Below, piece after piece: positions 1 to 19,747 of a stretch of DNA of 24,618 nt. Every line of letters begins with the position of its first letter. Within the stretch, counting starts at the first letter, position 1. Source of the stretch: an uncultured Eubacteriales bacterium (lineage in GTDB: Bacteria > Bacillota > Clostridia > Oscillospirales > Oscillospiraceae). The translations under genes and the position numbers were made by a program. The notes under the pieces are model-generated. The model did no database searches, was not told where the DNA came from, and saw only the letters and a program-made list of their open reading frames with translations. The DNA lies in NCBI GenBank assembly GCA_900546255.1, contig URCB01000025.1, positions 1 through 24,618 on the forward strand, in the 5' to 3' direction.

Positions 1-578
1 CCCACGCCGGCCCCCACCTGCCCCAGCAGCCACAGGGGGTGCACCCCCGCCGACCACAGCATCACCAGATAGATGGCCAGGTACACCGCCACCATCCCAA
101 TGTCCCCGGACACCCCGTACACCAGGGCGCACAGCGCCAGCACATGGAGCAGCAGCAGGGCCGCCGACTTGGGCCGGTTGAGCCCCTTCTCCCCCTGTTT
201 CTGCAGCTGCAGGGCCAGCAGGAGCAGGAAGGTCACCTTCACCACCTCCCCAGGCTGGAGGTTGAACAGCCCCCCCGGCAGGGCCAGCCAGCTCTTGTTG
301 CCGGTGCCGTCGTCGTTGCCGAAAGGGACCAGGAGCAGCAGCAGCCCTGCGTTTAGTGGGGGCAGCAGCCACCATAGCCTTTCCAGCAGACGCCGCACAT
401 CCAGCACCCGCAGCACCAGGCACACCGTCACCCCACCGGCCAAGGCCACCCCTTGCTTGGCCACCATACTGTGGAGCTCCGGGTCATACCGGGTGGCGCT
501 GTAAACCAAGGCCAGGCCGTATCCAGCCGCCGCCAAGCAGAGGAAAAACAGCGTCCACTCCCCCCGTTTGCTTCCCAT
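1..578 (-). CDS. SEDS-family (FtsW/RodA/SpoVE-like) membrane protein, N-terminal part, truncated by the window edge
   Basis: Reading the minus strand from ATG at 578 gives about 192 residues with no stop before the left edge, so only the N-terminal part is seen. It is very hydrophobic: a first membrane segment near residues 9-27, then several more. The segment [20 protein letters not shown] matches the SEDS pattern in which a short Trp/Leu loop precedes 'FQPSE..K', here with Gly in place of the usual Ser. A later GDIGMVAVY stretch resembles the SEDS 'PDLGTA' motif holding the conserved Asp. SEDS proteins are peptidoglycan glycosyltransferases that work with class B PBPs in elongation, division or sporulation. 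An AGGAGGGG ribosome site lies just upstream of the start. The motifs are loose, so this is a divergent paralogue, and I cannot say whether it is FtsW, RodA or SpoVE. It is transcribed divergently from tsaE. Confidence 0.75.
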
Positions 579-679
579 GGCCCTCCCCTCCTTTCCCAGC
601 CAGTCAAGGCTTGTCCCCCCGGTCAGACCCTTCTCCCCCCATGATACCCCCGGTCTCCCATAAATTTTGTCGCAGAGGG

Positions 680-708
680 GTGCAACAGCGGCGGATTTAT
701 GATAGAAT
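680..708 (+). promoter_or_regulatory. possible promoter for tsaE-tsaB-upp
   Basis: TAGAAT (703-708) could be a -10 box, with GTGCAA (680-685) 17 bp upstream as a weak -35. The TATGAT overlapping it at 698-703 is an alternative. The stretch lies in the 190-bp divergent gap between the SEDS gene and tsaE and is the AT-richest part of it. The -35 is poor, so the call is tentative. Confidence 0.25.
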
Positions 709-768
709 AAATCAAATCACCGCGCCGAGACGGTTCCACACCGCCTCGGCCATCTGGGAGGCATGCCC

Positions 769-1227
769 ATGGAACACTATTCATCCAGCGTCCAGGAGAC
801 CGAAGCCCTGGGCCGGGCCCTGGCCCAGCACCTCACCCCCGGGACCGTGGTGGCCTTCACAGGGGACTTGGGGGCGGGCAAAACCGCCTTTGTCCGGGGC
901 ATGGCCCAGGGGTTGGGCATTGCCCAGCGGGTCACCAGCCCCACCTTTACCATTGTCAATGAGTACGAGGGGGGGCGGCTTCCCCTCTTTCACTTCGACA
1001 TGTACCGGTTGGGCAGCGCAGATGACCTCTTCGACATCGGTTGGGAGGATTTCCTCCGCCGGGGGGGCGTCTGTGCCGTGGAGTGGAGCGAGACCGTGCA
1101 AGAGGCCTTGGACGCCGACACCATCTACGTGGACATCCGTCGGGGCGCTGAGGACAACCAGCGGGTGCTCACCATCCGAGGCCCCGGTTCCGAGGACCTG
1201 TCCCTGGGAAAGGAAGGTGCGCAATGA
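769..1227 (+). CDS. tsaE: tRNA threonylcarbamoyladenosine biosynthesis ATPase TsaE
   Basis: TsaE is the P-loop ATPase that drives the TsaB-TsaD complex, which installs t6A at position 37 of ANN-decoding tRNAs in the cytoplasm. The 152-residue protein has the Walker A loop GDLGAGKT at about residues 32-39, then [10 protein letters not shown] and HFDMYRL, both hallmark TsaE motifs, and AVEWSE near residue 105. The family is usually about 150 residues. Two ATGs are in frame (763 and 769). The GGGAGG ribosome site at 756-761 is only 1 nt from the first but 7 nt from the second, so 769 is the better start. The stop overlaps the tsaB start by 4 nt (ATGA), implying translational coupling with its biochemical partner. 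Confidence 0.95.
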
Positions 1228-1946
1228 AAATTTTAGCCCTGGAATCCTCCGCCACGGCGGCCTCCGTGGCCCTGTGCGAGGACGAAACCCTCCTGGTCCA
1301 GGCCTTCCTCCACACCGGCCTGACCCACAGCCAAACCCTGCTGCCCATGGCCCGGGACCTGCTGAAGGCCTGCGGCCTCACCCCCGCCCAGGTGGATCTC
1401 ATCGCCGTGGCGGCGGGGCCCGGTTCCTTTACTGGGCTGCGCATCGGGGTGGCCACCGCCAAGGGCTTGGCCTGGGCGGCGGAGAAACCCTGCGCCGGCT
1501 GCTCCACCCTGGCCTCCATGGCTTGGAACCTGGCGGGCTTTTCCGGCCAGGTGTGTGTGGCCATGGATGCCCGCCGCCACCAGATCTACAACGCCCGCTT
1601 CCAGGTGGACGGAACCCAACCCCACCGCCTCACCCCGGACCGGGCCATCGCCTTGGAGGACCTGGTGGCAGAGCTCCAGGGGACCCAAAGCCCCCAGCTG
1701 GTGGTGGGGGACGGCGCCCAGCTGTGCTACGATGCCCTCACCGCAGCCGGCATCCCCGCCAAACTGGCGCCCCCCAACCTCCGCCTCCAAAGCGCCTGGG
1801 GGGTGGCCCGGGAGGGGCTTGCCCTGGCCCAGGCAGGTCAGACCTGCCCGCCGGACCAGCTGGTCCCCGCCTACCACCGCCTCTCCCAGGCAGAGCGGGA
1901 ACGCCTGGCCCGGGAGAAGGCCGCCCCAGCCCCACAGAACCAATGA
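1224..1946 (+). CDS. tsaB: tRNA threonylcarbamoyladenosine biosynthesis protein TsaB
   Basis: TsaB is the catalytically inactive ASKHA-fold partner that dimerises with TsaD and binds TsaE in t6A synthesis. The 240-residue product starts [17 protein letters not shown], the standard N-terminal ASKHA strand, and carries [11 protein letters not shown] and [21 protein letters not shown], the most conserved blocks of the family. It overlaps tsaE by 4 nt. In many Firmicutes the next genes are rimI and tsaD. Here the next gene is upp, so tsaD must lie elsewhere. The C-terminal tail is rich in Ala, Arg and Glu and looks poorly conserved. Confidence 0.95.
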
Positions 1947-1969
1947 CAGAGAAAGGGAGACATGGAACA

Positions 1970-2602
1970 ATGGACGAAATGGTACACGTATTGGATCACC
2001 CCCTCCTGCAGCACAAGCTCTCCATCCTTCGGGACGAGACCACTGGCGTGAAAGATTTCCGCGAGATCGTCAACGAAGTGGCCACCCTCATGTGCTATGA
2101 GGCCACCCGAGACCTTCCCCTCCAGGACGTAGAAGTCCAGACCCCCGTGGCCAAGGCGGTCACCAAGCAGTTGGCCGGCAAAAAGCTGGCCATCGTCCCC
2201 GTCCTCCGGGCGGGGCTGGGGATGGTAGAGGGAATCCTCACCCTGATCCCCTCGGCCAAGGTGGGCCACATCGGCCTCTTCCGGGACCCGGAGACCTTGG
2301 AGCCCGTCAAATACTATTGTAAGATGCCCACAGACATCGCCGAGCGGGATGTGATCATCCTGGACCCCATGCTGGCCACCGGTGGCTCCGCCTCCGCTGC
2401 CATCACCTTTGTCAAGGAGTACGGGGTGAAGAACATTAAGCTCATGAACATCCTGGCCGCCCCCGAGGGCATCGCCCGGGTCCGGGCGGACCACCCGGAT
2501 GTGGAGATCTACATCGCCGCCGTGGATGAAAAGCTCAATGACCACGGCTACATCGTCCCCGGTTTGGGGGACGCCGGTGACCGGATTTTCGGCACCAAGT
2601 AA
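1970..2602 (+). CDS. upp: uracil phosphoribosyltransferase
   Basis: UPRT converts uracil and PRPP to UMP and pyrophosphate (pyrimidine salvage). The 210-residue length is normal for the family. The PRPP-binding loop [13 protein letters not shown] is at about residues 131-143. The uracil-binding C-terminal block [13 protein letters not shown] is at about 194-206, and RAGLGM at about 80-85. The reading frame is open far upstream, but AAGGGAGA at 1953-1960 is about 9 nt before the ATG at 1970, and the residues from there match the family N-terminus ([13 protein letters not shown]). It follows tsaB by 23 nt and is probably in the same transcript. A strong terminator follows immediately. Confidence 0.97.
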
Positions 2603-6195: not shown

Positions 6196-6224
6196 TTGCG
6201 CTTTCCCGGAAACTATGGTATGAT
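6196..6224 (+). promoter_or_regulatory. predicted promoter of the Dlt/Alg-like operon
   Basis: TTGCGC (6196-6201), 17 bp, TATGAT (6219-6224) with TATGG immediately before the -10. The spacer begins with TTTCC-C-GGAAA (6202-6212), an inverted repeat shared with the promoter at 4915-4943 and a candidate operator. Transcription would start near 6231, leaving a leader of about 70 nt. Confidence 0.7.
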
Positions 6225-6303
6225 GTAGTGTCCTAAAGCGTCTAAAACCTGGCTCTCTCCCGGGCCAAATGGTTTGGATACCCTGCCTTTGGGAGGTTTG
6301 TCT

Positions 6304-7830
6304 ATGCTGCAAAAAAATGTATTGGAATACTTGGAAGCTTCCGCTTCCCGGGTCCCGGACAAAGTGGCCTTTTCCGATGAAGCGGAGGCCTTCACCTTTG
6401 CCCAACTCCAGTCCGCAGCCAAAAGCATGGGCACTGCTTTGGCCCAGCGAAGCGCCCGAAAAAATGCGCCGGTGGTGGTGCTGGTCAACCACCGGGCTGC
6501 CAATCTGGCCGCCTGTTTCGGTGCTCTATATGCGGGAAATTTCTATGTCCCGCTGGACAGCCAGATGCCCCTGCCCCGGCTGCGTTCCATTCTGGAAACC
6601 CTCTCCCCCGCCGCCCTGGTATATGACGAGAAGGAGGCGGAGACCGCCCAAGCCCTGGCGGAGTACTGCCCCCTCCTCTTGGACCGGGAGGGATTTGCCT
6701 GCCCGGAGGATCTATCCCTCCTGACCGCCCGGCGCCGGGGTGTGCTGGACATCGACCCGGTGTACGCCATCTTTACCTCTGGCTCCACCGGCACTCCAAA
6801 GGGGATCGTCATCTCCCACCGAAGCGTCATTGACTTCATCGAATGGATGGCGGAGGCCTGCCAGATCACCGGGGAAGACGTCATGGGCAACCAGGCCCCC
6901 TTTTACTTTGACCTGTCGGTGAAAGACATCTACCTCACCCTCAAGTGTGGGGCCACCACCCACATCATTCCCAAGAAGGACTTTCTCTTCCCCACCTTGC
7001 TCATCGACTTTTTGGAGGAAAAGAAGGTCACCGCCCTCATCTGGGCCACTTCCGCCTTCCATCTGGTGGCCAACTCCGGGGTGCTGGAAAAGAAGGCACC
7101 CAGCTGTCTGCGCACCGCCATCTTAGGCGGCGAGGCCCTGCAGGCCAAGCAGCTCAACCGTTGGCGGGCTGCCCTGCCCCAGGTACAGTACATCAACCTC
7201 TATGGTCCCACGGAAGTCACTGTGGACTGCACCTGGTATCCCATCCAGCGGAATTTTGCCGACCACGAGCGCATCCCCATCGGCACCGCCTGCGCCAACA
7301 AAGAGGTGTTCCTCCTGGACGAGACCTTGCAGCCAGTCCCCCCAGGCCAGCCTGGGGAGATCTGCGTGCGCGGCATGGGCCTGGCCAAGGGGTACTTCGG
7401 CCAGTGGGACAAGACTCGCGCCGCTTTCATCCAAGACCCTCGGAACCCCAACTACCCAGACCTGATCTACCGCACTGGCGACTTGGCGGTGATGGATGAG
7501 GACGGCCTGCTCACCTTCCTCACTCGACGGGACGGGCAGATCAAGCACATGGGTTACCGCATCGAGCTGGGGGAGATCGAAACCACCTTGAACAGCTTCC
7601 CGGCCATCCAAGAGGTGGCCTGCTTCTTCGACCCGGAGCGGGACCGCATCCACTGCGTCTACACCGGTACCCAGGACAGCAAGGCCATCGCCAAACAGGC
7701 CCGGGCCAGCCTGCCCCGCTACATGGTGCCCAACCTCTACCATCAGGTGGAAACCATGCCCCACAACCCCAACGGGAAGATTGACCGACCCCGCCTGCGG
7801 GAGGAGTACCTTGGACATGAAACTCACTGA
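6304..7830 (+). CDS. DltA-like amino-acid adenylating ligase
   Basis: The 508-residue ANL-superfamily enzyme is expected to activate an amino acid with ATP and load it on the carrier protein encoded two genes on. Motifs appear in order: A3 FTSGSTGTPKG (about 157-167), A4 FYFDLSVKDIY with the Asp that binds the substrate amino group, A5 NLYGPTEVT, A7 YRTGDL, A8 DGQIKHMGYRIELGEIE and A10 NPNGKIDRPRL with the catalytic Lys. The length and lack of condensation domains fit DltA (D-alanine:carrier ligase). However, the FCGE block of Bacillus DltA reads LGGE here (Gly at about 275), so the substrate may not be D-alanine. GGGAGG at 6291-6296 supports ATG 6304 over the upstream in-frame TTG at 6274. 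It overlaps the next gene by 14 nt. Confidence 0.85.
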   Translation: MLQKNVLEYLEASASRVPDKVAFSDEAEAFTFAQLQSAAKSMGTALAQRSARKNAPVVVLVNHRAANLAACFGALYAGNFYVPLDSQMPLPRLRSILETLSPAALVYDEKEAETAQALAEYCPLLLDREGFACPEDLSLLTARRRGVLDIDPVYAIFTSGSTGTPKGIVISHRSVIDFIEWMAEACQITGEDVMGNQAPFYFDLSVKDIYLTLKCGATTHIIPKKDFLFPTLLIDFLEEKKVTALIWATSAFHLVANSGVLEKKAPSCLRTAILGGEALQAKQLNRWRAALPQVQYINLYGPTEVTVDCTWYPIQRNFADHERIPIGTACANKEVFLLDETLQPVPPGQPGEICVRGMGLAKGYFGQWDKTRAAFIQDPRNPNYPDLIYRTGDLAVMDEDGLLTFLTRRDGQIKHMGYRIELGEIETTLNSFPAIQEVACFFDPERDRIHCVYTGTQDSKAIAKQARASLPRYMVPNLYHQVETMPHNPNGKIDRPRLREEYLGHETH

Positions 7831-8617
7831 CTACGCCGCCCTCGCCCAGCTGGCCTCGGCCCATCTCCGGCCAGGGGTGCGGGCCAACACCATGGTCTCA
7901 CAGACGGAATATGGCGCCTCCTTGGCGGGAGGAACCCTCACCGCTCAGGAGACCCCTGCCGGCCTTCTCCTGCTGCGGGACCGTGGAGACCATACCCGGC
8001 TGCATTTCTTCCTGGAGGACCTCTCCGTCCCTCTGGGTGCCGCCCTCCCGGACCCTACGGTAACCGAAGTGGCCTACCGTCCCAGGGACAAGGGTCTGCG
8101 GGAGGCTGTGGACTACCTCATAGAGCAGGGGTTCACCCCCCTGTTTGAGCGGCTTCGCCTCTCCCGTCCGGCGGGAGAGACGGGAGCGCCAGCGCTCCCT
8201 GTGTCCCGCCCTGGGCCGGAGCGCGGGCGGGATGTGCTGGCCTTTCTGCAGGCCAACTTCTCTCCCCTCACCGGCTGCCTGCCCAATGAGGCGGAGCTGA
8301 AGGCCGACCTGGCCCACCGCCAGGTCCTGCTCTTGGAGGAGCAAGGGGCCATTACGGGCCTGCTCCACTTTACTCTAGAGGGGACCACCGGCGAGATCCG
8401 CCACCTGGCCATCCAGGCATCTCGCCGCGGGACCGGCCGCACCCGCCCCCTCCTGGCCGCCTACCTCCAAGCCATTGGCGGAGCCAAAAGCGTGGTGTGG
8501 ACCCGCGCGGACCATCTGGCCGCGCAGACCGCCTACGGCCGCTTTGGCTTTGCCCCCGATGGCCGGCGTTCCGCCGTGCTATGCTACACTAAGAAAGAAG
8601 GGAACAAACACCCATGA
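7817..8617 (+). CDS. GNAT-like acetyltransferase domain protein of the Dlt/Alg-like operon
   Basis: A 266-residue protein. The C-terminal part (about 168-255) looks like a GNAT fold: a strand-rich segment LLLEEQGAITGLLHFTLEGT, then RHLAIQASRRGTGR with the acyl-CoA pyrophosphate-loop pattern RRGTGR (203-208), then the typical TAYGRFGF near the end. The first about 115 residues may be a degenerate second GNAT-like half (EAVDYLIEQGFTPLFERLRL), joined by a Pro/Gly/Arg-rich linker (about 116-138). The role in the operon is unknown; N-acylation of the activated amino acid or of the glycan amine is conceivable. ATG 7817 lies 10 nt after GGGAGGAG (7799-7806) inside the ligase 3' end; TTG 7811 is the alternative. 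The stop overlaps the carrier gene (ATGA), so the proteins are made together. Confidence 0.65.
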   Translation: MKLTDYAALAQLASAHLRPGVRANTMVSQTEYGASLAGGTLTAQETPAGLLLLRDRGDHTRLHFFLEDLSVPLGAALPDPTVTEVAYRPRDKGLREAVDYLIEQGFTPLFERLRLSRPAGETGAPALPVSRPGPERGRDVLAFLQANFSPLTGCLPNEAELKADLAHRQVLLLEEQGAITGLLHFTLEGTTGEIRHLAIQASRRGTGRTRPLLAAYLQAIGGAKSVVWTRADHLAAQTAYGRFGFAPDGRRSAVLCYTKKEGNKHP

Positions 8618-8844
8618 AAGAACAACTGCTGCAAATCTTGACCGAAGCCGTCCCCGGCGTGGACTTTGAAACCGAAACCGCCCTGGTGGACGATGAGATT
8701 CTGGAATCCCTGGACATTGTCACCATCGTCTCCGAAATTAAGGACGCCTTTGAGGTAGAGATCTCGGTAGACGACCTGGTCCCGGAGAACTTTAACTCTG
8801 TAGAAGCCATGCTGGCCCTCATCCAGGCCCGGAAAGACGACTGA
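8614..8844 (+). CDS. DltC-like acyl/aminoacyl carrier protein
   Basis: A 76-residue acidic four-helix carrier protein. The phosphopantetheine attachment site is Ser32 in DDEILESLDIV, matching the DSL/DSM motif of ACPs and DltC with Glu replacing the usual Asp just before the Ser. The later stretch FEVEISVDDLVPENFNSVEA is the conserved helix III region. It should be converted to the holo form by a phosphopantetheinyl transferase encoded elsewhere, and would carry the aminoacyl group from the DltA-like ligase to the MBOAT. The start overlaps the GNAT stop by 4 nt, and only 2 nt separate the stop from the MBOAT start. Confidence 0.9.
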   Translation: MKEQLLQILTEAVPGVDFETETALVDDEILESLDIVTIVSEIKDAFEVEISVDDLVPENFNSVEAMLALIQARKDD

Positions 8845-8846
8845 CC

Positions 8847-10424
8847 ATGTCCTTCACCTCCCTTCCCTTCCTGGTGCTGGTACTGGTATCGGTGGGGGTG
8901 TATTATCTGCTGCCCAAAAAGGGGCAGTGGGTGGCCCTACTGGCAGCCAGCATGGTGTTTTACTGTGTAGGGGGCGGCAAAACCGTCCTCTACGTGTTTT
9001 ACACCGCAGCCACAGTCTATGTCTCCGGCCGCCTGCTGGGGCACTTCAATGCCCTGCGCCGGGCCGCCCCCAAGGAGGAGCGCAAAGCCATCACCGCCAA
9101 GTACAAACCTTACCGTCGAGGGGTGGTCCTGTTTGCCTGCTTGGCCAACTTTGTGCTACTCTACATCCTCAAGTACTGGAACTTTACCGCAGAGCTTTTG
9201 CAGCCTCTGGCTGACCAGGTAAGCCCTGGGAGCCAGATTCCCCTGTCGGAACTGGTGCTCCCACTGGGTATCTCCTATTTTATCTTCCAGTCGGTGGGCT
9301 ATGTCATCGACGTCTATCGGGACAAGTATCAGCCGGAGAAGAACTTTGCCAAACTCCTTCTGTTTGTCTCCTTCTTCCCCCAAATGGTCCAGGGGCCCAT
9401 CGGCCGGTTTGACCAGCTGGCCCCCCAACTGCTGGCCCAGCGCTCGGCGGACTACACCAACCTGAAGTACGGCATCCAACTGATGATGTGGGGTTATTTC
9501 AAAAAGATGGTCATCGCCGACCGGGCCGCCGTGTTGGTGAACACCGTTCTGGACGATCCCTGGTCCTACAGCGGCAGTATCCTCGCCGTGGGGGTCCTGT
9601 TCTACTGTATCCAGCTCTACGGCGATTTCTCCGGGGGCATCGACATTGCCCGAGGGGTTGCCCGGATGTTCGGCATTGACTTGGCGGAAAACTTCCGCCG
9701 CCCCATCTTCTCCACCTCCCTCACCGACTTCTGGCGCCGGTGGCACATCACCTTGGGAGCCTGGATGCGGGATTACCTGTTCTATCCCCTCTCCCTGTCC
9801 AAACCCTTCGGCCGGTTGGGCCGGTTCACCCGGAAGCACATCAAGGGAAAGCTGGGGAAGATTTTGCCCACCTCCCTGGCCACTTTCATCGTCTACTTTG
9901 TCATCGGCATCTGGCACGGCGCCAACTGGCGGTATGTGGCCTTCGGCTTTTGGAACGGCGGTATCATCACCCTGTCCCTGTTGCTGGCCCCGCAGTTCTT
10001 GGTGTGGAAGGAAAAACTCCACATCAACGACAAGTCCCTGGGTTGGCATATTTTCCAAGTGGTACGCACCAACATTCTGGTCTTCTTCGGCCGGTACATC
10101 ACCCGGGCCCCCCGCTTTCTCACCGCCGTGTGGATGGTGAAAGAGACGTTCCTCCATCCCAACCTGCCTGACCTGTGGAACGGCACCCTGCTCTCCCTGG
10201 GCCTCACCGGTTGGGACCTTGCCGTCCTGTGGATTGGCGTGGCCATCATGCTGGCGGCAGAGTGGTACCAGGAAAAACAAGGGCCCATTCGCCCTATGTT
10301 GGAAACGAAACCCGCCTGGTTCCAATGGTTCACCACCATGGTACTGCCTTTGGCAATCCTCTTTTGCCTCGGCGTCCTCCGGGCAGACTATATCCCCGAG
10401 GGCTTCATCTATCAGCAGTTCTAA
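8847..10424 (+). CDS. MBOAT-family O-acyltransferase, AlgI-type
   Basis: A 525-residue polytopic membrane acyltransferase. MBOAT landmarks are LPLGISYFIFQSVGYVIDVY, FFPQMVQGPIGRF, DFWRRWHITLGAWMRDYLFY (His near 300) and GIWHGANWRYV, with the near-invariant His at about 357. DltB proteins are usually about 400 residues. This length and the extended C-terminal hydrophobic segments are closer to AlgI/PatA, the transferases that O-acetylate alginate and peptidoglycan. In both systems the MBOAT moves an acyl group across the membrane to an SGNH or DltD partner, here the next gene. The start lies 2 nt after the carrier-protein stop. The acyl donor is inferred to be the DltC-like protein. Confidence 0.9.
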   Translation: MSFTSLPFLVLVLVSVGVYYLLPKKGQWVALLAASMVFYCVGGGKTVLYVFYTAATVYVSGRLLGHFNALRRAAPKEERKAITAKYKPYRRGVVLFACLANFVLLYILKYWNFTAELLQPLADQVSPGSQIPLSELVLPLGISYFIFQSVGYVIDVYRDKYQPEKNFAKLLLFVSFFPQMVQGPIGRFDQLAPQLLAQRSADYTNLKYGIQLMMWGYFKKMVIADRAAVLVNTVLDDPWSYSGSILAVGVLFYCIQLYGDFSGGIDIARGVARMFGIDLAENFRRPIFSTSLTDFWRRWHITLGAWMRDYLFYPLSLSKPFGRLGRFTRKHIKGKLGKILPTSLATFIVYFVIGIWHGANWRYVAFGFWNGGIITLSLLLAPQFLVWKEKLHINDKSLGWHIFQVVRTNILVFFGRYITRAPRFLTAVWMVKETFLHPNLPDLWNGTLLSLGLTGWDLAVLWIGVAIMLAAEWYQEKQGPIRPMLETKPAWFQWFTTMVLPLAILFCLGVLRADYIPEGFIYQQF

Positions 10425-10439
10425 TGAGAGGAGGTCTCC

Positions 10440-12281
10440 ATGAATTCCAAACGATGGCTGTTGGGGTTTTTGGCCACCGCAGTGGTCTTAGGGGCTGCTG
10501 TGCTGGGCTTTAACTGGTTGGTAGACCCCTTCGGGGTCTTTTCCCACAAAGCGCTGGAGTGGCCCTCCTATGAGATGACCATGAATCCCCGTACCGCCAA
10601 AATCACCTACCTCAAAGAGCACCACGAGGAGTACGACTCCTATATCTTAGGCTGCTCCTCCGTGAGTTCCTTTCCCACAGACGCCCTCAACACGTATTTT
10701 GACGCCAATTTCTACAATATGATCGCCTACGGGGCGGACATGTTGGATGTAGAACAGCAGGCCTTCTATCTAGTGGAAAACTACGAGGTAAAGAACCTGG
10801 TGGTCAGCGTCTACATCGACAACGCGATGAACTATAACGAGGAAGCAGATCCCCTCTCCTATGCCATGCCGCCGGAGACCACCGGGGAAAACCCTCTCGC
10901 CTTCTACGCCAAATACCTTTTCATGGACCCCCGCCATAGTTTGGACAAGCTGGAGGCCATGGTGCAGGACACCTATCTGACCCAGACCTTCGACGTCTTT
11001 GACGCCAGTGACGGCGCCTATGACAAAAAGGTGCGGGACGCGGAGCCCATTGGAAATATGGATGCGTACTTGGAGTCCTATCCCGTCTTCGCCAATTACC
11101 CTGCCCTTTCCAACCAGACCAATGAGGAAGCCATCACCGGCACCCTGGAGAGCCTGACGCGGATTAAGCAGCTCTGTGAAGACAATGGGGTCCAGCTGAC
11201 CGTGGTGACTGCCCCGGTGTATGCGGACTATTTGGCCTCCTTCCCCTGGGAGCAAGTGGCGTCCTTTTACACCCGGTTGGCCGAGGTCACCGATTATTGG
11301 GATTTCTCCTACAGCTCCGTGAGCTTTGAGCCCCGGTACTTCTACGATGAAACCCACTTCCGGGAGTGCGTTGGCGACATGGCCCTGGCCCGGATGTTTG
11401 GGGATGAGAGTGTGTACATTCCTGAAGACTTTGGAGCCTATGTCACCCCTGACAACGTAGCAGAGCATGTGGCCCAGATGGCTCAGGCAGAACCTCTTCC
11501 GTTGGAGGAGTACACGGCCCAGGTCCCGGTGCTCATGTACCACCACATCTCGGAGGAGGGGAATGACAGTACGGAGCTCTCCCCAGAGGCCTTCGAAGCC
11601 CAGATCGCCGCCTTGGCAGAGGCCGGTTACACCTCTGTGTTCCCCGAGGATCTGGCTGCCTACGTCCGGGAGGGCAAGGAATTGCCGGAGAAACCCATTG
11701 TCATCACGTTTGACGACGGGTACTTGAGCAACTATGAATACGCCTACCCTATCCTGAAGAAATACGGTATGGTGGCCACCATCTTCGTCATCGGTTCTAC
11801 CGTAGGGGACACGGAGCATTATAAAGACACCGATTACCCCATCACCCCCCACTTCTCCTACGAACAGGCCAAGGAAATGGTGGACTCTGGGGTCATCTCC
11901 ATCCAGAGCCACACCTACGACATGCACCAATGGGGCCCCTATGAGGACTCTGACCAGCCCCGGGAGAACCTTCTCCCCCTGGAAGGGGAGTCGGAGGAGG
12001 ACTACCGGGCCGCCCTCTCCGCCGACTGCGAAACCATCCGCCGGGAGATCCAGGAAGGGACTGGGGAGGAGGACGTCCACGTCATCGCCTTCCCCGGTGG
12101 GTACTATGATATCCTAAGCCTGGTAACCCTGTTGGAGAACGGGTTTGACATCTCCTTTTCCACTGAGATCGGCACCAATATCCTCATTAAGGGGCTGGAC
12201 CAATCTCTCCTGGCCCTGGACCGGTACAACATGAATGGGTCCGTCTCCCCAGAGCAGATGCTGGAATGGATCCGTTCCTAA
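10440..12281 (+). CDS. SGNH/DltD-AlgX-like domain fused to a NodB (CE4) polysaccharide deacetylase
   Basis: A 613-residue protein with an N-terminal membrane anchor (about 5-27) followed by VDPFGVF, a sequence typical of AlgX/DltD-like extracellular proteins. Residues about 35-330 look like an SGNH-type acyltransferase or esterase: a candidate nucleophile Ser in YILGCSSVSSF (71-77) and a DETH Asp-His pair (303-306). Residues about 360-613 are a polysaccharide deacetylase: VLMYHHI (364-370), metal-binding TFDDGY (423-428), SHTYDMH (490-496) and FPGGYYD (551-557). Both domains would face outside the membrane. The family role of CE4 enzymes is N- or O-deacetylation of glycans; that of the SGNH partner is acyl transfer to the glycan. 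GAGGAGG upstream supports ATG 10440, 15 nt after the MBOAT. I know of no standard name for this fusion. Confidence 0.85.
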   Translation: MNSKRWLLGFLATAVVLGAAVLGFNWLVDPFGVFSHKALEWPSYEMTMNPRTAKITYLKEHHEEYDSYILGCSSVSSFPTDALNTYFDANFYNMIAYGADMLDVEQQAFYLVENYEVKNLVVSVYIDNAMNYNEEADPLSYAMPPETTGENPLAFYAKYLFMDPRHSLDKLEAMVQDTYLTQTFDVFDASDGAYDKKVRDAEPIGNMDAYLESYPVFANYPALSNQTNEEAITGTLESLTRIKQLCEDNGVQLTVVTAPVYADYLASFPWEQVASFYTRLAEVTDYWDFSYSSVSFEPRYFYDETHFRECVGDMALARMFGDESVYIPEDFGAYVTPDNVAEHVAQMAQAEPLPLEEYTAQVPVLMYHHISEEGNDSTELSPEAFEAQIAALAEAGYTSVFPEDLAAYVREGKELPEKPIVITFDDGYLSNYEYAYPILKKYGMVATIFVIGSTVGDTEHYKDTDYPITPHFSYEQAKEMVDSGVISIQSHTYDMHQWGPYEDSDQPRENLLPLEGESEEDYRAALSADCETIRREIQEGTGEEDVHVIAFPGGYYDILSLVTLLENGFDISFSTEIGTNILIKGLDQSLLALDRYNMNGSVSPEQMLEWIRS

Positions 12282-12320
12282 CCCCCCAAACGGTCCCCTT
12301 CGGGGGACCGTTTGGGGTTT
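12280..12320 (+). terminator. terminator of the Dlt/Alg-like operon
   Basis: A 13-bp perfect stem (12286-12298 with 12303-12315) closed by a TTCG tetraloop, followed by GGTTTGTC. The flanking C/G runs can extend the stem. It begins at the operon's last stop codon and lies between convergent genes. The T tract is short. Confidence 0.7.
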
Positions 12321-12331
12321 GTCGCCTCCCC

Positions 12332-12928
12332 TCACCGCTGCTCCAGCTTGCGTGCCTTGCTGTAAAAGGTGGCCACCGGCAGGCCACAGGCTCCGGCGGC
12401 CTGGCGCAGAGTCATGGTTTTGGCCCGCCATGCCCGGTGGAGGCTGTGGAAATTCTCCAGCAGCGGGCGGGGCGGCCGGCCGAAGCGAACCCCTCGGGCC
12501 TTGGCCGCAGCGATGCCCTCTGCCTGGCGCTGGCGGATGTTGGCCCGCTCGTTCTCCGCCACGAAGGAGAGGACTTGCAGGACGATGTCGCTGAGGAAGG
12601 TGCCCATCAGGTCCTTGCCCCGCCGGGTGTCCAGCAGGGGCATGTCCAGCACCACGATATCCACCCCCTTCTCCTTGGTAAGCAGCCGCCACTGGTCCAA
12701 AATCTCCCGGTAGTTGCGCCCCAGGCGGTCGATGCTGTGGAGATAGAGCAGATCGTCCCGTCGGAGCTTCCGCACCAGGCGCTGGTACTGGGGGCGGTCA
12801 AAGTCCTTCCCCGACTGCTTGTCGGCGAAGATGTTCCGCGGAGGGATGTCCAGCTGGTCCATGGCTAGGCGCTGGCGGTCCTCGTTCTGTTCCCGGGTGC
12901 TGACCCGGATGTATCCATACTTGGTCAT
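12332..12928 (-). CDS. small serine recombinase (resolvase/invertase family)
   Basis: A 198-residue protein of the Tn3-resolvase/Hin-invertase class. The catalytic domain begins MTKYGYIRVSTREQNEDRQR with the nucleophile Ser10 in YIRVST. SIDRLGRNYREIL is the conserved Arg-containing block, and the ENERANIRQRQAEGIAAAKARG stretch is the typical long E helix. A C-terminal Hin-like helix-turn-helix follows (TLRQAAGACGLPVATFYSKA). These enzymes carry out site-specific inversion or resolution through a covalent phosphoserine. ATG 12928 is chosen because the family N-terminus starts there and AAGGGGG precedes it by about 7 nt; a longer upstream reading has no support. No transposase, integrase or obvious invertible segment is visible next to it, so its substrate is unknown. 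Confidence 0.9.
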   Translation of the reverse strand: MTKYGYIRVSTREQNEDRQRLAMDQLDIPPRNIFADKQSGKDFDRPQYQRLVRKLRRDDLLYLHSIDRLGRNYREILDQWRLLTKEKGVDIVVLDMPLLDTRRGKDLMGTFLSDIVLQVLSFVAENERANIRQRQAEGIAAAKARGVRFGRPPRPLLENFHSLHRAWRAKTMTLRQAAGACGLPVATFYSKARKLEQR

Positions 12929-12937
12929 GGTATGACC
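12923..12937. repeat. 15-bp palindrome over the recombinase start codon
   Basis: GGTCAT-GGT-ATGACC: 6-bp perfect inverted arms with a 3-bp centre, spanning the recombinase start codon and the edge of its ribosome site. It may be an autoregulatory site or half of a recombination site, or chance. Confidence 0.4.
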
Positions 12938-12981
12938 CCCTTTTCTCGCATCCCTCCCTGCCCTGCCAGTGCGTTTCCCCA

Positions 12982-13016
12982 CACGAAAAGCCCCCTGCCC
13001 ATACTGGGCAGGGGGC
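12982..13016 (-). terminator. intrinsic terminator of the radical SAM gene
   Basis: An 11-bp stem (12990-13000 with 13006-13016), 5-nt loop, followed on the minus strand by CTTTTCGTG. It lies 12 nt past the stop of the radical SAM gene. Confidence 0.8.
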
Positions 13017-14298: not shown

Positions 14299-16701
14299 TT
14301 ACCCCTCCATCCCCCGCAGGCGTTCCACCAGTGGCTCCTTGGCGAAGGTGTGGAGGGACACCCCGGTGATCACCAGGGGGACCAGCACCAGCACCGCCAC
14401 ATAGGCCAGGGCAAACCCCGTGGGGAACTGGAAGACCATGTAGTGCACCCCCATCCCCGCCAGGGTCCGGCTGAGGAACCAGCCGCAGAGGGTGCCCACC
14501 GTGAGGGTAACCCCCACCGTGGCCAGCACCAGCAGGAGGCTCTCCCCCAGGAGCATCTGGCGGACCTGCCCCTTGCCCATGCCAATGGACTCCAGCATGG
14601 CCAGCTCCTGCTTCCGGGTGACGATGTTGGTGATGAGGGTGTTCATCATGCTCAGGATGCTAAAGAGCATGATGAAGATGGCCAGGCCGCTGATGGCCCC
14701 AAAGATGGTGTTCACGTTCTGGGCATCCACCGCCTGCCGCTGGGAGAGGGTTTCCATGGTCAGCTCGCTCCGGGCGGCCACCAGGGGCTCCAGAGCGGCC
14801 TCTACGGCGGCCTCCTGGCCGTCGGCGGCATTCACCAGCAGGCCGGTGTTGAAGGTGTCGTAGGACACCCAGCTTTGGGCCACCGCCTCCGGCAGGAGGA
14901 ACCAGCCCTCCAGCAGCTCGTTGTCCCGGTTGTACTGGTCATTGAGGATGCCCAGCACGGTCACCGTCCGCTCCGCCGGGCCGGTGCCGTCGAAGTAGTG
15001 GAAGGTCAACTGGTCCCCCACCTGGAAGCGCCAGCCGTAGATCTCCTCCACGTTGTTGTTGTCGGCCACCAGGACATAGGACCCGGACATCAGCTGGTCA
15101 TAGTCGGCGCTGCCCTCCTCCAGGTACTGGCCGATGGTGCGGACCTCCTCCTGGGTCATCAGCCAGGCCATGTCGTCGTTGTCATACTCACTCTGGGTGG
15201 GAATGTCATAGGAGAGGCCGAAGTTCTTCAGCTCCTGGACCGACTCCACCCCGTCCAGGGCCAGGATCTCCTCCACCATGGCCTGGTCCATGGGTTGGTT
15301 GGCCTGGAGGCCGCTGATGCCGTTGTCCTCCAGCTCGATGGCCGCCTGGGTGTAGTTGATATGGGCCTCCGCGTCCTTAAAATAGATCTGGCGGGAGTAG
15401 GCATCCCGGTCGAAGGAGGTCATGTAGGTGGCCGCCGTCATAAACAGGATGCCCCCCAGGGCCAGGGAGAGCATGGTGACGGTGGCCTTCTTCCGGTTCT
15501 TTCCAAAGTTCATCACCCCCAGCCCCACCGGGGTGAGGTTCCGGCACAGCTTGCGGCCGGCTGCCGCCTTCATGCCGTCCTGGGGCTGGTACCGCAGGGC
15601 CTCCATGGGGGAGACCGCCGCCGCCAGTTTGGCCGGCTTGTGGACCGAGAGCAGGGTGATGACGTAGACCACCACAAACACCCCCACCGCCAGGAGCAGG
15701 GTATTGAGGATGCTGAACCCCGCCGGCAGGAGGAAATACCCCACCACACCGCCGATCACGATCCCCAAGGGGGCGGCCCGCAGAAAGAGCATCCGCCCCT
15801 CTCGGGAGACCAGCTTCCGCATCTGCTTTTTGGTCATGCCGATGGTGCGCAGCTGACCGAACTGATGGACCCGGCCAATGACAGAGAGGTAGAACACCCC
15901 ATAGATCACCAGCACCGCCGCCAGCAAGATCACCGCCCCCACCAGGCCGTAGAGGAGAACCTGCTGGCTGTCCACCGACAGGGAGTCTAGGAAAGCCCGG
16001 GAGGGGTTCACAAACTGCCGCTCCACCCCGGCATCGCTGCCGATGAGGAACATGGCCTCCTGGCAGTCCCACTGGTTCATGGTGGTGGCCCCGTAGAGCT
16101 GGGCATAGACCTCATAGGGCTCCTCCGCCAGCTGGCTGCCCGTCTCGGCGTAGGCCTGGGAGAAGAAGAGGGAGAACTGGCTGGCGTTCTCTCCCCCTGC
16201 CAGCAGGCCGGTGACGGTAAAGGTCTCCGTATTGCCGTCGTAGAAGGGGAAGGTCACCTGGGTGCCCAGGGCGGCAGGCAGGCCCATCCGCTCCAGCATG
16301 GCCCCTTGGACGGCCACCTCGTTGGCCGCCTGGGGGAGGCTCCCCTGGGTGAGGGTGCCCACCTGGATGTGGTCGGACATCTCGCTGACGTAGTAGGGCA
16401 CCACGGAAAAACCGTCCAGCTCCGTGGGCACCCCGGTTTTCACTTGGATCTGGTAGGCGATCCGCTCGTCCCTTTGCAGGGCCTCCACCTGGGTCTCGGT
16501 GAGGTTATAGTAGCCCACCTGCTGGGCGTGGGTGAGGTTCCGCTGGGTCTGCTCCTGCTGCCCTACGGCAAACATCAGGATACCCATAAGCAGGGCCGAG
16601 GCCAGGACGATGGTGAGCATCACAAACCCGTTGCGCATCCGGCTGGCCCGCAGGCTGGCCTTGGCCATGCGGGCAATCATGTCCCGTTCCAGTTTCTTCA
16701 T
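14299..16701 (-). CDS. ABC transporter permease, FtsX/MacB-like, two FtsX domains
   Basis: An 800-residue membrane protein. The layout is a first membrane segment (about 24-47), a large extracellular domain (about 50-265), three membrane segments (about 270-375), a second unit starting with a membrane segment near 415, another large extracellular domain to about 635, and three C-terminal segments. This is a tandem FtsX arrangement with about eight membrane spans. It is distinct from BceB (ten spans, one large domain) and is found in Clostridia exporters or peptide-stress transporters. ATG 16701 follows AGGAGGGG by about 7 nt; in-frame codons further upstream have no such site. It is 13 nt downstream of its ATPase gene. 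The substrate is unknown. Mechanotransmission or antimicrobial-peptide resistance is plausible given the adjacent two-component system. Confidence 0.9.
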   Translation of the reverse strand: MKKLERDMIARMAKASLRASRMRNGFVMLTIVLASALLMGILMFAVGQQEQTQRNLTHAQQVGYYNLTETQVEALQRDERIAYQIQVKTGVPTELDGFSVVPYYVSEMSDHIQVGTLTQGSLPQAANEVAVQGAMLERMGLPAALGTQVTFPFYDGNTETFTVTGLLAGGENASQFSLFFSQAYAETGSQLAEEPYEVYAQLYGATTMNQWDCQEAMFLIGSDAGVERQFVNPSRAFLDSLSVDSQQVLLYGLVGAVILLAAVLVIYGVFYLSVIGRVHQFGQLRTIGMTKKQMRKLVSREGRMLFLRAAPLGIVIGGVVGYFLLPAGFSILNTLLLAVGVFVVVYVITLLSVHKPAKLAAAVSPMEALRYQPQDGMKAAAGRKLCRNLTPVGLGVMNFGKNRKKATVTMLSLALGGILFMTAATYMTSFDRDAYSRQIYFKDAEAHINYTQAAIELEDNGISGLQANQPMDQAMVEEILALDGVESVQELKNFGLSYDIPTQSEYDNDDMAWLMTQEEVRTIGQYLEEGSADYDQLMSGSYVLVADNNNVEEIYGWRFQVGDQLTFHYFDGTGPAERTVTVLGILNDQYNRDNELLEGWFLLPEAVAQSWVSYDTFNTGLLVNAADGQEAAVEAALEPLVAARSELTMETLSQRQAVDAQNVNTIFGAISGLAIFIMLFSILSMMNTLITNIVTRKQELAMLESIGMGKGQVRQMLLGESLLLVLATVGVTLTVGTLCGWFLSRTLAGMGVHYMVFQFPTGFALAYVAVLVLVPLVITGVSLHTFAKEPLVERLRGMEG

Positions 16702-16714
16702 GGCGCGCCCCTCC

Positions 16715-17380
16715 TTACCGGTGGATCTTCCCGTCCTCGATGCGGACCTGGACATCGGCCTTGGCTGCAATCTCGGGGTTGTGGGTGATCATCACGATGG
16801 TCTGGTGAAAGGTGGCGCTGGTCATTTTCAGCAGGTCGATGACCCGGTCGCTGGTGTGGCTGTCCAGGTTGCCGGTGGGCTCGTCGGCCAAAATGATGGC
16901 GGGCTTGGTGATCAGCGCCCGGGCGATGGCCACCCGCTGCTGCTGGCCGCCGGAGAGGTGGCTGGGATAGCTGGCCAGTTTGCCCTCCAGGTCCAAAAAG
17001 CCCACGATCTCCCGGAGGAGGGCCTTGTCCTCCTGCTTGCCGTCCAAACGGACGGGGAGGACGATGTTCTCATAGGCGGTGAGGTAGGGGATCAAGTTGT
17101 AATTTTGAAAGATGAAACCGATCCGCTGGCGGCGGAAGACGGTGAGGTCCTCGTCCCGAAGGTCCTCCAGCTGGAAGTTGTCCACCTTCACGGTGCCGCC
17201 GGTGGGCCGGTCCAGCCCGCCCAGCATGTTCAGCAAGGTGGACTTGCCGGAGCCGGAGGTGCCGATGATGGCCACGAACTGCCCCGCCTCTACGGACAGG
17301 GAGACGTCGTCCAGGGCCTTCACCAGGCTGGCGCCCTGACCATACTCCTTGGTCAGGTGGGTGGTTTGCAGGATACGCAT
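16715..17380 (-). CDS. ABC transporter ATP-binding protein (MacB/LolD type)
   Basis: A 221-residue ATPase of the MacB/LolD/BceA group. Walker [10 protein letters not shown] (40-48), Q-loop [16 protein letters not shown] (Q92), signature LSGGQQQR (142-149), Walker [13 protein letters not shown] (162-173) and H-loop H200 in MITHN are all intact. The '[14 protein letters not shown]' form is characteristic of partners of FtsX-type permeases. ATG 17380 is preceded by AAGGAAGG. It is the first gene of a two-gene operon with the permease 13 nt downstream. It lies behind a weak promoter and a pair of direct repeats likely bound by the upstream LytTR regulator. Confidence 0.95.
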
Positions 17381-17534: not shown

Positions 17535-18866
17535 TTAGGAGACGGGCTCCTGGGCCCGGGCAGGGGCCTCCACCTGGGGGATGGGCAGGAGGATTTTCAG
17601 GGTAAACACGCCCCCCTCCCCCCGGGTGAGCACATGGCCGCCGTACCCCTCCGCAGTGCGCCGGAGGTTGGCCAAGCCGTAGCCGTGGAGGAAGGTGTCC
17701 CCCTTGGTGGTGCGGGCATGTTCCGGGGCCTGGGGGTCCATGGTGTTCTCCACCAGGATGAGAAGCATGTCCCGCACCCGGCCGGTTTTCACCGTCACCA
17801 GCCGCTGGCCCTGGGGCAGCTTTTCGCAGGCCTCGATGGCGTTGTCCAGGGCGTTGCCGAACAGGGTGCTGATGTCCAGGGGGGCCAGGAACCCCCCGTC
17901 GGCAAAGGGGGTCACCGCGGTGAAGTCGATCCCCTTTTCCCGGGCGGCCTTGGCCTTGTCCCGAAGGACGATGTCCAGGTACTCGTTGCCGGTGTGCTGG
18001 TAGCTCTCATAGGCCTCCAATTGAACCTGCAGATCCTGGGCAGCCTGGTGGAGGGCCTGGCTGCCCCCGGTCTGGGCCTGGAGGACCAGAAGGTGGTTCT
18101 TCATGTCGTGGTAGATGCTGCGCACCCGCTCCTCGTCCCGGAGGCGGTCTTTGTAGTAGGCCTGCTGCTTCTCCAGAGCCTGGGCCCGGTACCGGTCCTG
18201 GAGGGAGTCGCAGATGTAGGCCGCCACATAGATGCAGCCAAAGCTGGAGAAGATAGAGGCAAAGCACACCGGGTAGACGATGGCCATCTCCTCCGGCATG
18301 AAGTAGATGATGATAAAGATACACACAAAGGGGGCCAGCATCACCGCGTCCACCATCCACCACATGGCGGCGGTGAGGCTCTCGGCGATCCGCTTGAGCT
18401 TCCGGCGAAGGAAGGCCCAGGCCCCCACCCAGAACCCCAACCGGGCCAGCAGGGACAGGGTGTGGATCAGGGTGCTCCAGAACCAGTCGGACTCGGTCCA
18501 GCCTGGGCCGGGCTCGCCGGGGGCGCCGGTGTAGGCGAAGAAAAGGTTCGACCCGGCGTCCTGCATGAGGTAGTTGACCGCAATGAGGGCGGGGTAGAAC
18601 ACCAGCACCGCCGCCACCTTCTTCATCCACCGCCCCCGGTGGAAGACAGCCACATAGCCAAAGAAGCCCACCATGGCTCCCAGCAGCCCTGGCAGGTCGT
18701 TGGAGTAGATCACCACCACCGACAGCTGGGCGCAGACCACCACCGCCGCCAGCCGAAGGGGCCAGGGCTTCCGCACCGGCAAAAAGGTGTGGAGAATCCA
18801 GAAAAACAGCAGCGCATAGGCCCACTCCACCACAAAACTCAGCACATCCAGCAGGGTAATGATCAC
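17535..18866 (-). CDS. GHKL (AgrC-like) sensor histidine kinase
   Basis: A 443-residue kinase. The N-terminal half (about 1-215) is hydrophobic with about six membrane segments and no recognisable extracellular domain. A coiled-coil stretch follows (QALEKQQAYYKDRLRDEERV). The phospho-acceptor box is IYHDMKNHLLVL (His253), the N box STLFGNALDNAIEA, and the G box GYGLANLRRTAEGYGG. This is the GHKL-type ATPase of AgrC/ComD-like kinases, which often sense peptides. The start is GTG 18866, overlapping the regulator stop (GTGA), with GGGGGG upstream. Its catalytic half is strikingly like that of the second kinase at 20106-21386, while the sensor halves differ. Confidence 0.93.
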   Translation of the reverse strand: MIITLLDVLSFVVEWAYALLFFWILHTFLPVRKPWPLRLAAVVVCAQLSVVVIYSNDLPGLLGAMVGFFGYVAVFHRGRWMKKVAAVLVFYPALIAVNYLMQDAGSNLFFAYTGAPGEPGPGWTESDWFWSTLIHTLSLLARLGFWVGAWAFLRRKLKRIAESLTAAMWWMVDAVMLAPFVCIFIIIYFMPEEMAIVYPVCFASIFSSFGCIYVAAYICDSLQDRYRAQALEKQQAYYKDRLRDEERVRSIYHDMKNHLLVLQAQTGGSQALHQAAQDLQVQLEAYESYQHTGNEYLDIVLRDKAKAAREKGIDFTAVTPFADGGFLAPLDISTLFGNALDNAIEACEKLPQGQRLVTVKTGRVRDMLLILVENTMDPQAPEHARTTKGDTFLHGYGLANLRRTAEGYGGHVLTRGEGGVFTLKILLPIPQVEAPARAQEPVS

Positions 18867-19573
18867 AGCATATCCCCCCAGTAGTCGGTGAGCTGGGCCA
18901 GGAAGGTTTTCCGCTTGGGCTGGCTGATGGGAAGGGTCTCCCCGGTGATGAGGGTGAGTTCCAGCTTGTGGACCCCTTTCACATAGAACAGGTTCACCAG
19001 GTAGCTGGTGTGGCACCGGGCAAAGCCCTTGTCCCCCAGGGCGGCCTCCATCTCCTTCATGGTGCGGTAGCTGATGAGGTTCTGCTCCTGGGTGTGGCAG
19101 AGGAGGTTGCGGTTGAAGGTTTCGATATACCGCAGGTCCCGCAGGGCCACCCGGTGGCGGCCGGCGTCGTTGGCGATCACCACGAAGGGGTCTGGCTCCT
19201 TCTGCCGCCGGGCCAGGAACTTGTCCATCTCCGCCTTGAGGCGGATGTACTGCAGGGGTTTTAGGATGTAGTTGGTGGCCTGGTACTGGTACCCCTCCAA
19301 GCTGTACTGGGCCAGGGTGGTGAGGAAAATGATGCTCACCTGCCCGTCCATTTCTCGGATGCGCTGGGCGGTGCGCAGGCCATCCATGATACCCATTTGA
19401 ATGTCCAGAAAAATCAGGTCCAGGGTGGGGTCGTAGGGGTCGGTGAGGTCCGCCCCATCCCCAAAGGTGCTGATTTTCAGTTCTGTGCCGGTCTCCTGGG
19501 CGTAACGGTCCAGCAGCTGGGACAGATGCTGGACAAACGCCGCTTCGTCATCACAGATTGCCACGTGGAGCAA
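18863..19573 (-). CDS. LytTR-family response regulator (AgrA/ComE-like)
   Basis: A 236-residue regulator. The receiver domain spans about 1-120, with the acidic pocket at VAICDDE, phospho-acceptor D57 in LIFLDIQMG and the conserved Lys in YILKPL. A LytTR DNA-binding domain covers about 135-236 (LRDLRYIETFNRNLLCHT, FARCHTSYLVNLFYV, LPISQPKRKTFL). It should be phosphorylated by the kinase encoded just downstream and activate target promoters as a dimer on direct repeats. The start is probably TTG 19573, 5 nt after GAGGGTGA. GTG 19582 is also in frame but touches the ribosome site. A strong promoter lies at 19609-19637. Confidence 0.93.
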   Translation of the reverse strand: MLHVAICDDEAAFVQHLSQLLDRYAQETGTELKISTFGDGADLTDPYDPTLDLIFLDIQMGIMDGLRTAQRIREMDGQVSIIFLTTLAQYSLEGYQYQATNYILKPLQYIRLKAEMDKFLARRQKEPDPFVVIANDAGRHRVALRDLRYIETFNRNLLCHTQEQNLISYRTMKEMEAALGDKGFARCHTSYLVNLFYVKGVHKLELTLITGETLPISQPKRKTFLAQLTDYWGDML

Positions 19574-19608
19574 TCCGGTCACCCTCTTTCTCGTGCAAAT
19601 TCCGCCCT

Positions 19609-19637
19609 ATTATACCCCCTCTCTCCCGCGGGTGCAA
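19609..19637 (-). promoter_or_regulatory. promoter of the LytTR regulator-kinase operon
   Basis: On the minus strand TTGCAC (19632-19637), 17 bp, then a perfect TATAAT (19609-19614), about 36 bp before the start codon. Confidence 0.8.
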
Positions 19638-19720
19638 GGGCGAGTCCCTCCAACAGGGCAGCAGGAACAGTGTACCAGAACGCGTCTCAAGAATCAACCT
19701 CTTGTTTTTCTATTTTCAAC

Positions 19721-19747
19721 CCAATGTTTTTCCATATTGGATACAAT
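19721..19747 (+). promoter_or_regulatory. possible promoter/operator of the XRE-kinase operon
   Basis: TACAAT (19742-19747) is a plausible -10, but no good -35 lies 16-18 bp upstream. Instead there is an inverted repeat CCAAT-N10-ATTGG (19721-19740), where a regulator, perhaps the XRE protein itself, could bind. The stretch is markedly AT-rich against its surroundings. Confidence 0.4.

What the first reader, a model, noticed from the sequence alone, without database searches (positions are those of the whole stretch)
6196..12320. Hybrid Dlt/Alg operon: DltA-like ligase, GNAT, carrier protein, AlgI-type MBOAT and SGNH-deacetylase fusion
Seen: five tightly coupled genes (overlaps of 14 and 4 nt, gaps of 2 and 15 nt) between one promoter and one terminator. 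Known: dltABCD loads D-alanine on DltC, DltB (MBOAT) moves it outward and DltD completes transfer to teichoic acid; AlgI/AlgX-type systems O-acetylate polysaccharides. Inference: here the amino-acid activating front end of Dlt is joined to an AlgI-sized MBOAT and to an extracellular fusion that also deacetylates glycan. That suggests a surface glycan is de-N-acetylated and aminoacylated or acylated by one machine, which would raise positive charge by both routes. The GNAT is an extra component absent from classical dlt.
Basis: partly seen in the sequence, partly recalled or inferred. Interest (0 to 1): 0.8.

Follow-up and report, generated by a model that had tools for sequence, protein, structure and literature searches.

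The report
Carrier-fed cell-surface glycan acylation cassette
Five neighbouring genes, kept together in scattered gut and other anaerobic Clostridia, look like a machine that loads an activated amino acid, carries it through the membrane and attaches it to a surface sugar polymer while trimming acetyl groups from that polymer; it resembles the known D-alanine system of Gram-positive bacteria but is built from other parts and probably does not use D-alanine.

Summary
The five genes are real, with the stated overlaps and gaps. They form a conserved unit: the same order in 60 of 80 related loci, from Oscillospiraceae to Peptoniphilus and Fenollaria. It is not a dlt operon. Ligase, carrier and MBOAT score far below the DltA, DltC and DltB cut-offs. 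The MBOAT groups with AlgI-type proteins and ends in FIYQQF, the acyl-shuttle motif that Dlt carries on a separate microprotein, DltX. The last gene joins a DltD-like SGNH domain to a PgaB/PplD-type deacetylase. The GNAT is a tandem fold resembling mycothiol synthase. The ligase pocket (D235, K239, D331) is unlike DltA's and suggests a polar or acidic amino acid. In ten other loci the same back end is served by FkbH (presumably glyceryl-carrier) instead of ligase and GNAT, and the front end changed more than once. Best reading: a carrier-protein-fed MBOAT-SGNH acylation system with an exchangeable loading module, acting on a GlcNAc-containing envelope glycan that it also deacetylates. A 2025 paper says other MBOAT/SGNH pathways lack such a carrier; this appears to be an exception. 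'More positive charge by both routes' is not supported. Acyl group and acceptor are untested.

The parts
6196..6224 (+). possible promoter, weak -35 and extended -10 (TTGCGC-17-TATGAT)
   Evidence: seen by eye; not reported by the consensus scan
6304..7830 (+). amino-acid adenylation enzyme (508 aa), NRPS-type, not DltA; pocket D-L-K-I-I-G-L-V-D
   Evidence: TIGR01733 357.9 bits over cut-off 317.4, DltA 288.5 below 559.85; pocket residues; tree
7817..8617 (+). tandem-GNAT acetyltransferase (266 aa), proposed to N-acylate the carrier-bound amino acid
8614..8844 (+). carrier protein (76 aa), phosphopantetheine Ser32
   Evidence: PF00550; Ser present in 72 of 72 carrier hits
8847..10424 (+). AlgI-type MBOAT (525 aa) with His357 and built-in C-terminal acyl-shuttle motif FIYQQF (Tyr522)
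   Evidence: PF03062; DltB 148 bits below 375; motif; tree
10440..12281 (+). membrane-anchored SGNH acyltransferase fused to NodB-type (PgaB/PplD-like) N-deacetylase (613 aa)
12284..12317 (+). strong hairpin after the operon, likely terminator, between the operon and the convergent resolvase gene
   Evidence: -33.5 kcal/mol, z -5.7; not listed by the terminator scan

Best explanation
A carrier-protein-fed MBOAT-SGNH acylation cassette. In the cytoplasm the A enzyme activates an alpha-amino acid (pocket suggests polar or acidic, not D-Ala) and loads it on the carrier; the GNAT probably caps its amine. The MBOAT takes the acyl group from the carrier through the membrane onto Tyr522 of its own C-terminal FIYQQF tail, doing DltB's and DltX's jobs in one chain. 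The tail hands it to Ser73 of the SGNH domain, which esterifies an envelope glycan. The fused deacetylase removes N-acetyl groups from GlcNAc in the same glycan. Shown by sequence or model: gene set, order, motifs, folds, distribution, front-end exchange. Inferred: every chemical step, amine capping, amino acid identity, glycan identity.
Against: No biochemistry. The A-domain code is an indirect guide and the comparison with published codes is recalled; searches for code strings found nothing. GNAT is absent from L022, L024, L069, L152 and L065, so capping is not universal; its CoA-type motif in the window ends in T rather than A/G, and the acidic residue at 194 that all 24 rows of the first alignment share is E in only 39 of 63 loci. 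One full cassette, L040, has a dead deacetylase (D426G, H491C, H496Y), so deacetylation is dispensable. L065 shows no carrier match between A and MBOAT. The acceptor is unidentified: no PgaC/IcaA over cut-off (0 of 48) and TagF-type polymerases in only 8 of 48.
Confidence: 0.6

Rival explanations
1. A diverged dlt operon: the ligase still activates D-alanine and the product is D-alanylated teichoic acid.
For: Same functional roles; DltA, DltB and DltC models are among the hits; SGNH half has the DltD fold.
Against: All three equivalog cut-offs missed by wide margins; A and MBOAT group apart from DltA and DltB; pocket has G or A where the three DltA rows have Cys, and a Lys/Asp pair; 40 of 48 fusion-bearing genomes have no TagF-type polymerase; 3 genomes with a cassette also have a true dlt operon.
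Confidence: 0.12
2. Protect-deprotect: GNAT acetylates the amino acid for transport and the extracellular deacetylase removes that acetyl after transfer.
For: GNAT and deacetylase co-occur in 60 of 80 loci; the GNAT fold is closest by Z to an enzyme that acetylates an aminoacyl amine.
Against: The catalytic residues of the deacetylase are kept in 10 FkbH loci, which need no amine protection, and in five A-type loci without GNAT; L040 keeps GNAT with a dead deacetylase; the deacetylase half is closest to GlcNAc-polymer enzymes.
Confidence: 0.1
3. Same machine, but the amino acid is transferred with a free amine and GNAT does something else (for example makes or edits the amino acid, or adds a second residue).
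For: GNAT missing from five A-type loci (L022, L024, L065, L069, L152), three of them with a pocket that GNAT-bearing loci also have (DGKQLGLVD); no match to the GNAT profile elsewhere in two of those genomes.
Against: GNAT sits between A and carrier in 60 of 80 loci and was seen in no FkbH locus.
Confidence: 0.2
4. The cassette makes a secreted small molecule or modifies a lipid rather than a glycan.
For: The A enzyme is NRPS-like.
Against: Deacetylase half belongs with GlcNAc-polymer enzymes; among 760 flanking ORFs no other gene family is regularly beside it.
Confidence: 0.08

Closest known systems
Dlt system (DltA, DltB, DltC, DltD, DltX)
   Same: ATP-dependent ligase, carrier protein, MBOAT, acyl-Tyr tail motif, extracellular SGNH protein with DltD-like fold
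   Different: ligase, carrier and MBOAT outside the equivalog models; shuttle motif fused to the MBOAT; deacetylase fused to the SGNH domain; GNAT added; pocket not DltA-like
PatA/PatB and AlgI-type MBOAT-SGNH acetylation systems
   Same: MBOAT lineage, C-terminal FXYXXF tail, separate SGNH partner (PMC12148441, passages read)
   Different: those use acyl-CoA and lack a carrier protein according to that paper; here a dedicated carrier and loading enzyme are present
PgaB / IcaB / PplD NodB-type deacetylases
   Different: here the C-terminal half of an acyltransferase fusion; PgaB/IcaB equivalog cut-offs not reached; no PNAG synthase over cut-off in 48 genomes
Mycothiol synthase MshD and other tandem GNATs
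   Different: 12% identity; MshD equivalog cut-off not reached (20.4 against 163.1); by Foldseek E-value other tandem GNATs rank above MshD; substrate unknown
FkbH glyceryl-carrier loading
   Same: in variant loci FkbH, mostly with a carrier, serves an MBOAT and the SGNH-deacetylase
   Different: the FkbH partners in the papers seen here are polyketide or peptide pathways (PMC7489565 and PMC13122637, passages read)

Membership tests
Dlt system | ligase passes DltA equivalog model | tested here: not met
   288.5 bits, cut-off 559.85; groups apart
Dlt system | carrier passes DltC model | tested here: not met
   26 of 68 and 16.3 of 52.35 bits
Dlt system | MBOAT passes DltB model and lacks the tail motif | tested here: not met
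   148.1 of 375 bits; tail FIYQQF
Dlt system | separate DltX microprotein in the operon | tested here: not met
   overlaps and gaps of 2 and 15 nt leave no room between the genes; no small-ORF search of the rest of the window was made
Dlt system | SGNH protein of the DltD family | tested here: not met
Dlt system | activates D-alanine | not testable with these tools
   pocket differs from DltA; needs an assay
MBOAT-SGNH polymer acyltransferases | MBOAT with catalytic His and C-terminal FXYXXF | tested here: met
   His357 in WHG and FIYQQF; WHG in 76 of 83 MBOAT ORFs, several of the rest being partial
MBOAT-SGNH polymer acyltransferases | partner SGNH protein with Ser-Asp-His, outside the membrane | tested here: met
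   S73, D303, H306; single N-terminal helix 3-28 in the model; the outside location is inferred
MBOAT-SGNH polymer acyltransferases | acyl-Tyr intermediate | not testable with these tools
   needs labelling
AlgI/PatA subtype | no carrier protein, acyl-CoA donor | tested here: not met
   carrier gene in the operon, Ser in 72 of 72 hits; the donor itself was not testable
PNAG (pga/ica) system | PgaC/IcaA synthase in the genome | tested here: not met
   0 of 48 genomes of relatives over cut-off; the window's own genome is not held
NodB-type GlcNAc-polymer deacetylases | catalytic Asp and metal Asp-His-His | tested here: met
   80, 79, 80 and 79 of 83 ORFs keep D425, D426, H491, H496; the three substitutions are all in L040, the rest are gaps
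MshD mycothiol synthase | passes MshD equivalog model | tested here: not met
   20.4 bits, cut-off 163.1

The most novel reading that the evidence does not exclude
AlgI-type MBOATs with a built-in shuttle are a general outlet for carrier-bound acyl groups: Clostridia exchange the loading module (adenylation enzyme plus GNAT, or FkbH) on one SGNH-deacetylase back end, and so decorate envelope glycans with esters not described before, such as N-acetylated polar amino acids or glycerate, while unmasking glucosamine in the same polymer.
Probability: 0.4. Interest if true: 0.78.

Novelty: new variant of a known kind. Interest (0 to 1): 0.62.

Why it matters
The recent model (PMC12148441, passages) sets Dlt (carrier protein plus separate DltX) against the other MBOAT-SGNH systems (acyl-CoA, tail fused to the MBOAT). 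This cassette breaks that division. It is wide but sparse in Clostridia (12 of 295 genomes of one order hold the fusion), and 44 of 48 fusion-bearing genomes show no DltD. It implies unrecognised surface chemistry in these anaerobes, and its natural variants (no GNAT, dead deacetylase, FkbH front end) allow each step to be tested separately.

Tried and rejected
No genome is held for the window, so gene content was read from relatives' genomes. Target as PNAG: rejected as default because no PgaC/IcaA passes its cut-off in 48 genomes (weaker hits occur in 43 of 48 and in all 14 controls). Target as TagF-type teichoic acid: unlikely as a rule (8 of 48); LtaS-type LTA was not tested. Conserved neighbour naming the glycan: none found. 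The largest flank cluster holds 14 loci, with mixed orientation and distance; I did not identify it. The FkbH cluster (5 loci) is the one that explains variant loci. Cassette as specific replacement of dlt: not shown, DltD is rare in the order anyway. Protect-deprotect model: tested by comparison and disfavoured. Published A-domain codes: string searches found no paper, so 'Glu-like' rests on recall. In the A-domain tree two rows labelled 'other' (L127, L133) are, by genome, position and score, the cassette ligases of L018 and L053. The trees are quick ones (SH-aLRT only), on chosen rows: 30 cassette MBOATs, 29 of 30 other MBOATs (L090, a short frame, dropped; rows were required to end in the motif), 3 FkbH-type and 3 DltB; the cassette MBOAT group has support 93, not a star, and DltB as outgroup was my choice. 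The GNAT search used 8 genomes and missed one known diverged GNAT. In some searches no paper held the terms asked for; one search found two papers with FkbH and MBOAT, and I read passages of one, a cyanobacterial peptide pathway; papers were seen as listings only.
Full report
Observation. The five genes are present with the stated overlaps (14, 4 nt) and gaps (2, 15 nt): A 6304-7830, GNAT 7817-8617, carrier 8614-8844, MBOAT 8847-10424, SGNH-deacetylase 10440-12281. Pfam supports A, GNAT, carrier, MBOAT and deacetylase; the SGNH half carries no Pfam name. A strong hairpin follows, though the terminator scan did not list it; the promoter is only plausible.

Conservation. A search with the fusion protein gave 2217 proteins at E up to 0.001 among 7997 scored. 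An alignment of the window protein with 27 of them was used to scan one genome per species: 82 confirmed places, 80 kept. Of these 80 loci, 60 have A-GNAT-carrier-MBOAT-fusion in this order. The other 20 are: 6 whose contig ends in or just before the part upstream of the fusion (L016, L026, L038, L061, L062, L079); L023, with no A match in the 2.4 kb upstream of its GNAT; 3 A-type without GNAT (L022, L024, L069); 6 FkbH-type (L054, L056-L059, L070); L065 (A, MBOAT, fusion); L075 (fragmentary); L068 (fusion alone); L080 (carrier, MBOAT, fusion). In the 60 full loci the open frame (stop to stop) of each of the four later genes begins before, or within 30 nt after, the previous stop in 59, 57, 60 and 59 cases. 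Sources include Evtepia, Agathobaculum, Ruminiclostridium hungatei, Peptoniphilus, Aedoeadaptatus and Fenollaria. The nearest relatives of the window are Evtepia. In 295 genomes of the order of Evtepia gabavorous, 12 hold the nearly full-length fusion (my count from the list), 4 of them already in the set; most other hits there match the deacetylase half only. So the system is wide but sparse. Among 760 flanking ORFs no family recurs at a fixed place apart from FkbH in its own loci, so the genes appear to be a self-contained unit.

MBOAT. It passes Pfam MBOAT and reaches 148 bits with the DltB equivalog against a cut-off of 375. Its last residues are FIYQQF. In the 60 full cassettes the fourth residue from the end is Tyr in 60, and the pattern [FM][IVL]Yxx[FY] holds in 56. 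PMC12148441 (passages read) reports that DltX in the Dlt system and the C-terminus of PatA carry this motif and that its Tyr is acylated; [quoted passage not shown] In a quick tree of 65 MBOATs the 30 chosen cassette rows form one group (SH-aLRT 93), next to two FkbH-type MBOATs (100), inside AlgI-sized proteins; three DltB rows lie apart on a long branch. The three clear dlt operons found in cassette genomes have a motif-less DltB and a small DltX-like ORF with the motif. The cassette therefore combines Dlt's carrier logic with an AlgI-type MBOAT that contains its own shuttle.

Ligase. It passes the general amino-acid adenylation model and misses DltA by a wide margin; its best solved relatives are NRPS domains (linear gramicidin synthase 356 bits, best DltA 205). 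In a tree of 45 domains the cassette ligases are one starred group apart from the three DltA (two rows there are mislabelled, see Tried and rejected). Pocket residues read off an alignment to a Phe-domain ruler give DLKIIGLVD in the window. Over 63 cassette ligases, the window's included, position 235 is D in 63, 239 is K in 62 and R in one, 301 is G or A, and 331 is D in 63. In a second alignment the three DltA read DVCVVCAVL, DVCVVCTVL and DVCVLCAVL, and NRPS rows read codes that I recall as glycine (DILQLG..), threonine (DFWNIGMVH) and cysteine (DLYN..), which supports the positions. K239 with D331 is, from recall, like a known glutamate code. I take this as 'polar or acidic amino acid, not D-Ala', no more.

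Exchangeable front ends. Ten loci pair the fusion and an MBOAT with FkbH instead of A and GNAT: L054, L056-L059 and L070 of the 80, and L154-L157 of eight further full-length places fetched (L151-L158). In eight of the ten a carrier match lies beside it (weak in L054); in L056 and L057 none was found. Four of these FkbH proteins (L056, L057, L059, L070) were tested with NCBIfam and pass the TIGR01686 cut-off. FkbH proteins are proposed to make glyceryl-carrier from 1,3-bisphosphoglycerate (PMC7489565, passages). On a quick tree of 43 fusions the FkbH label needs 3 changes among rows with a known front end, and 2 if the unresolved L054 is left out. The MBOAT of L059 belongs to another AlgI clade than the cassette MBOATs. 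So the loading module, and at least once the MBOAT, have been exchanged while the fusion stayed.

Relation to dlt and to known polymers. The 48 genomes searched all hold the fusion locus; 42 have the full five-gene cassette, the other six are L022, L024, L057, L059, L070 and L075. DltD (PF04914) is found in 4 of 48, one of them weak, against 15 of 295 in the order. PgaC/IcaA passes its cut-off in 0 of 48. TagF-type polymerases occur in 8 of 48. Seven of the 48 show a single MBOAT match; in two isolates among them (G038, G042) it is by position the cassette's own. The acceptor is therefore unlikely to be PNAG made by a standard synthase or, as a rule, TagF-type teichoic acid. A common envelope glycan such as peptidoglycan, a cell-wall polysaccharide linkage unit, or an unrecognised polymer remains.

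Verdict. A real, wide but sparse, apparently undescribed variant of MBOAT-SGNH envelope acylation. The statement on novelty rests on searches of one open-access library; the key 2023 paper on DltX was not held.

Noticed in passing
L040 3880-5715: Full cassette whose deacetylase half has lost three catalytic residues while the SGNH triad is kept.
   Followed up: partly
L075 8957-11746: Peptoniphilus lacrimalis DSM 7455 locus with only parts of A and MBOAT and a fusion gene interrupted by a stop: it looks like a decayed cassette. Left as pieces.
   Followed up: no
L159 6016-10664: Two adjacent fusion-like genes whose matches end near residue 455 of the profile, beside an MBOAT ending QQFIYAGF; their C-terminal parts were not identified.
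   Followed up: no
L162 7093-8887: Two tandem stand-alone deacetylases of a type close to the fused domain, with no MBOAT or carrier match in the 15 kb held.
   Followed up: no
L065 6968-11842: A, MBOAT and fusion in a row with no carrier or GNAT detected between them.
   Followed up: no
window 356-2602: 748-aa open frame whose last 207 residues are a uracil phosphoribosyltransferase over its cut-off; the first 541 residues match no family in the Pfam and NCBIfam scans made.
   Followed up: partly
window 12332-12982 (-): Resolvase-type recombinase gene convergent with the operon, ending 50 nt from it.
   Followed up: no
window 14299-16770 (-), 17535-19582 (-), 19593-21386 (+): FtsX-type permease near two GHKL-domain proteins on opposite strands and a LytTR response regulator.
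   Followed up: no
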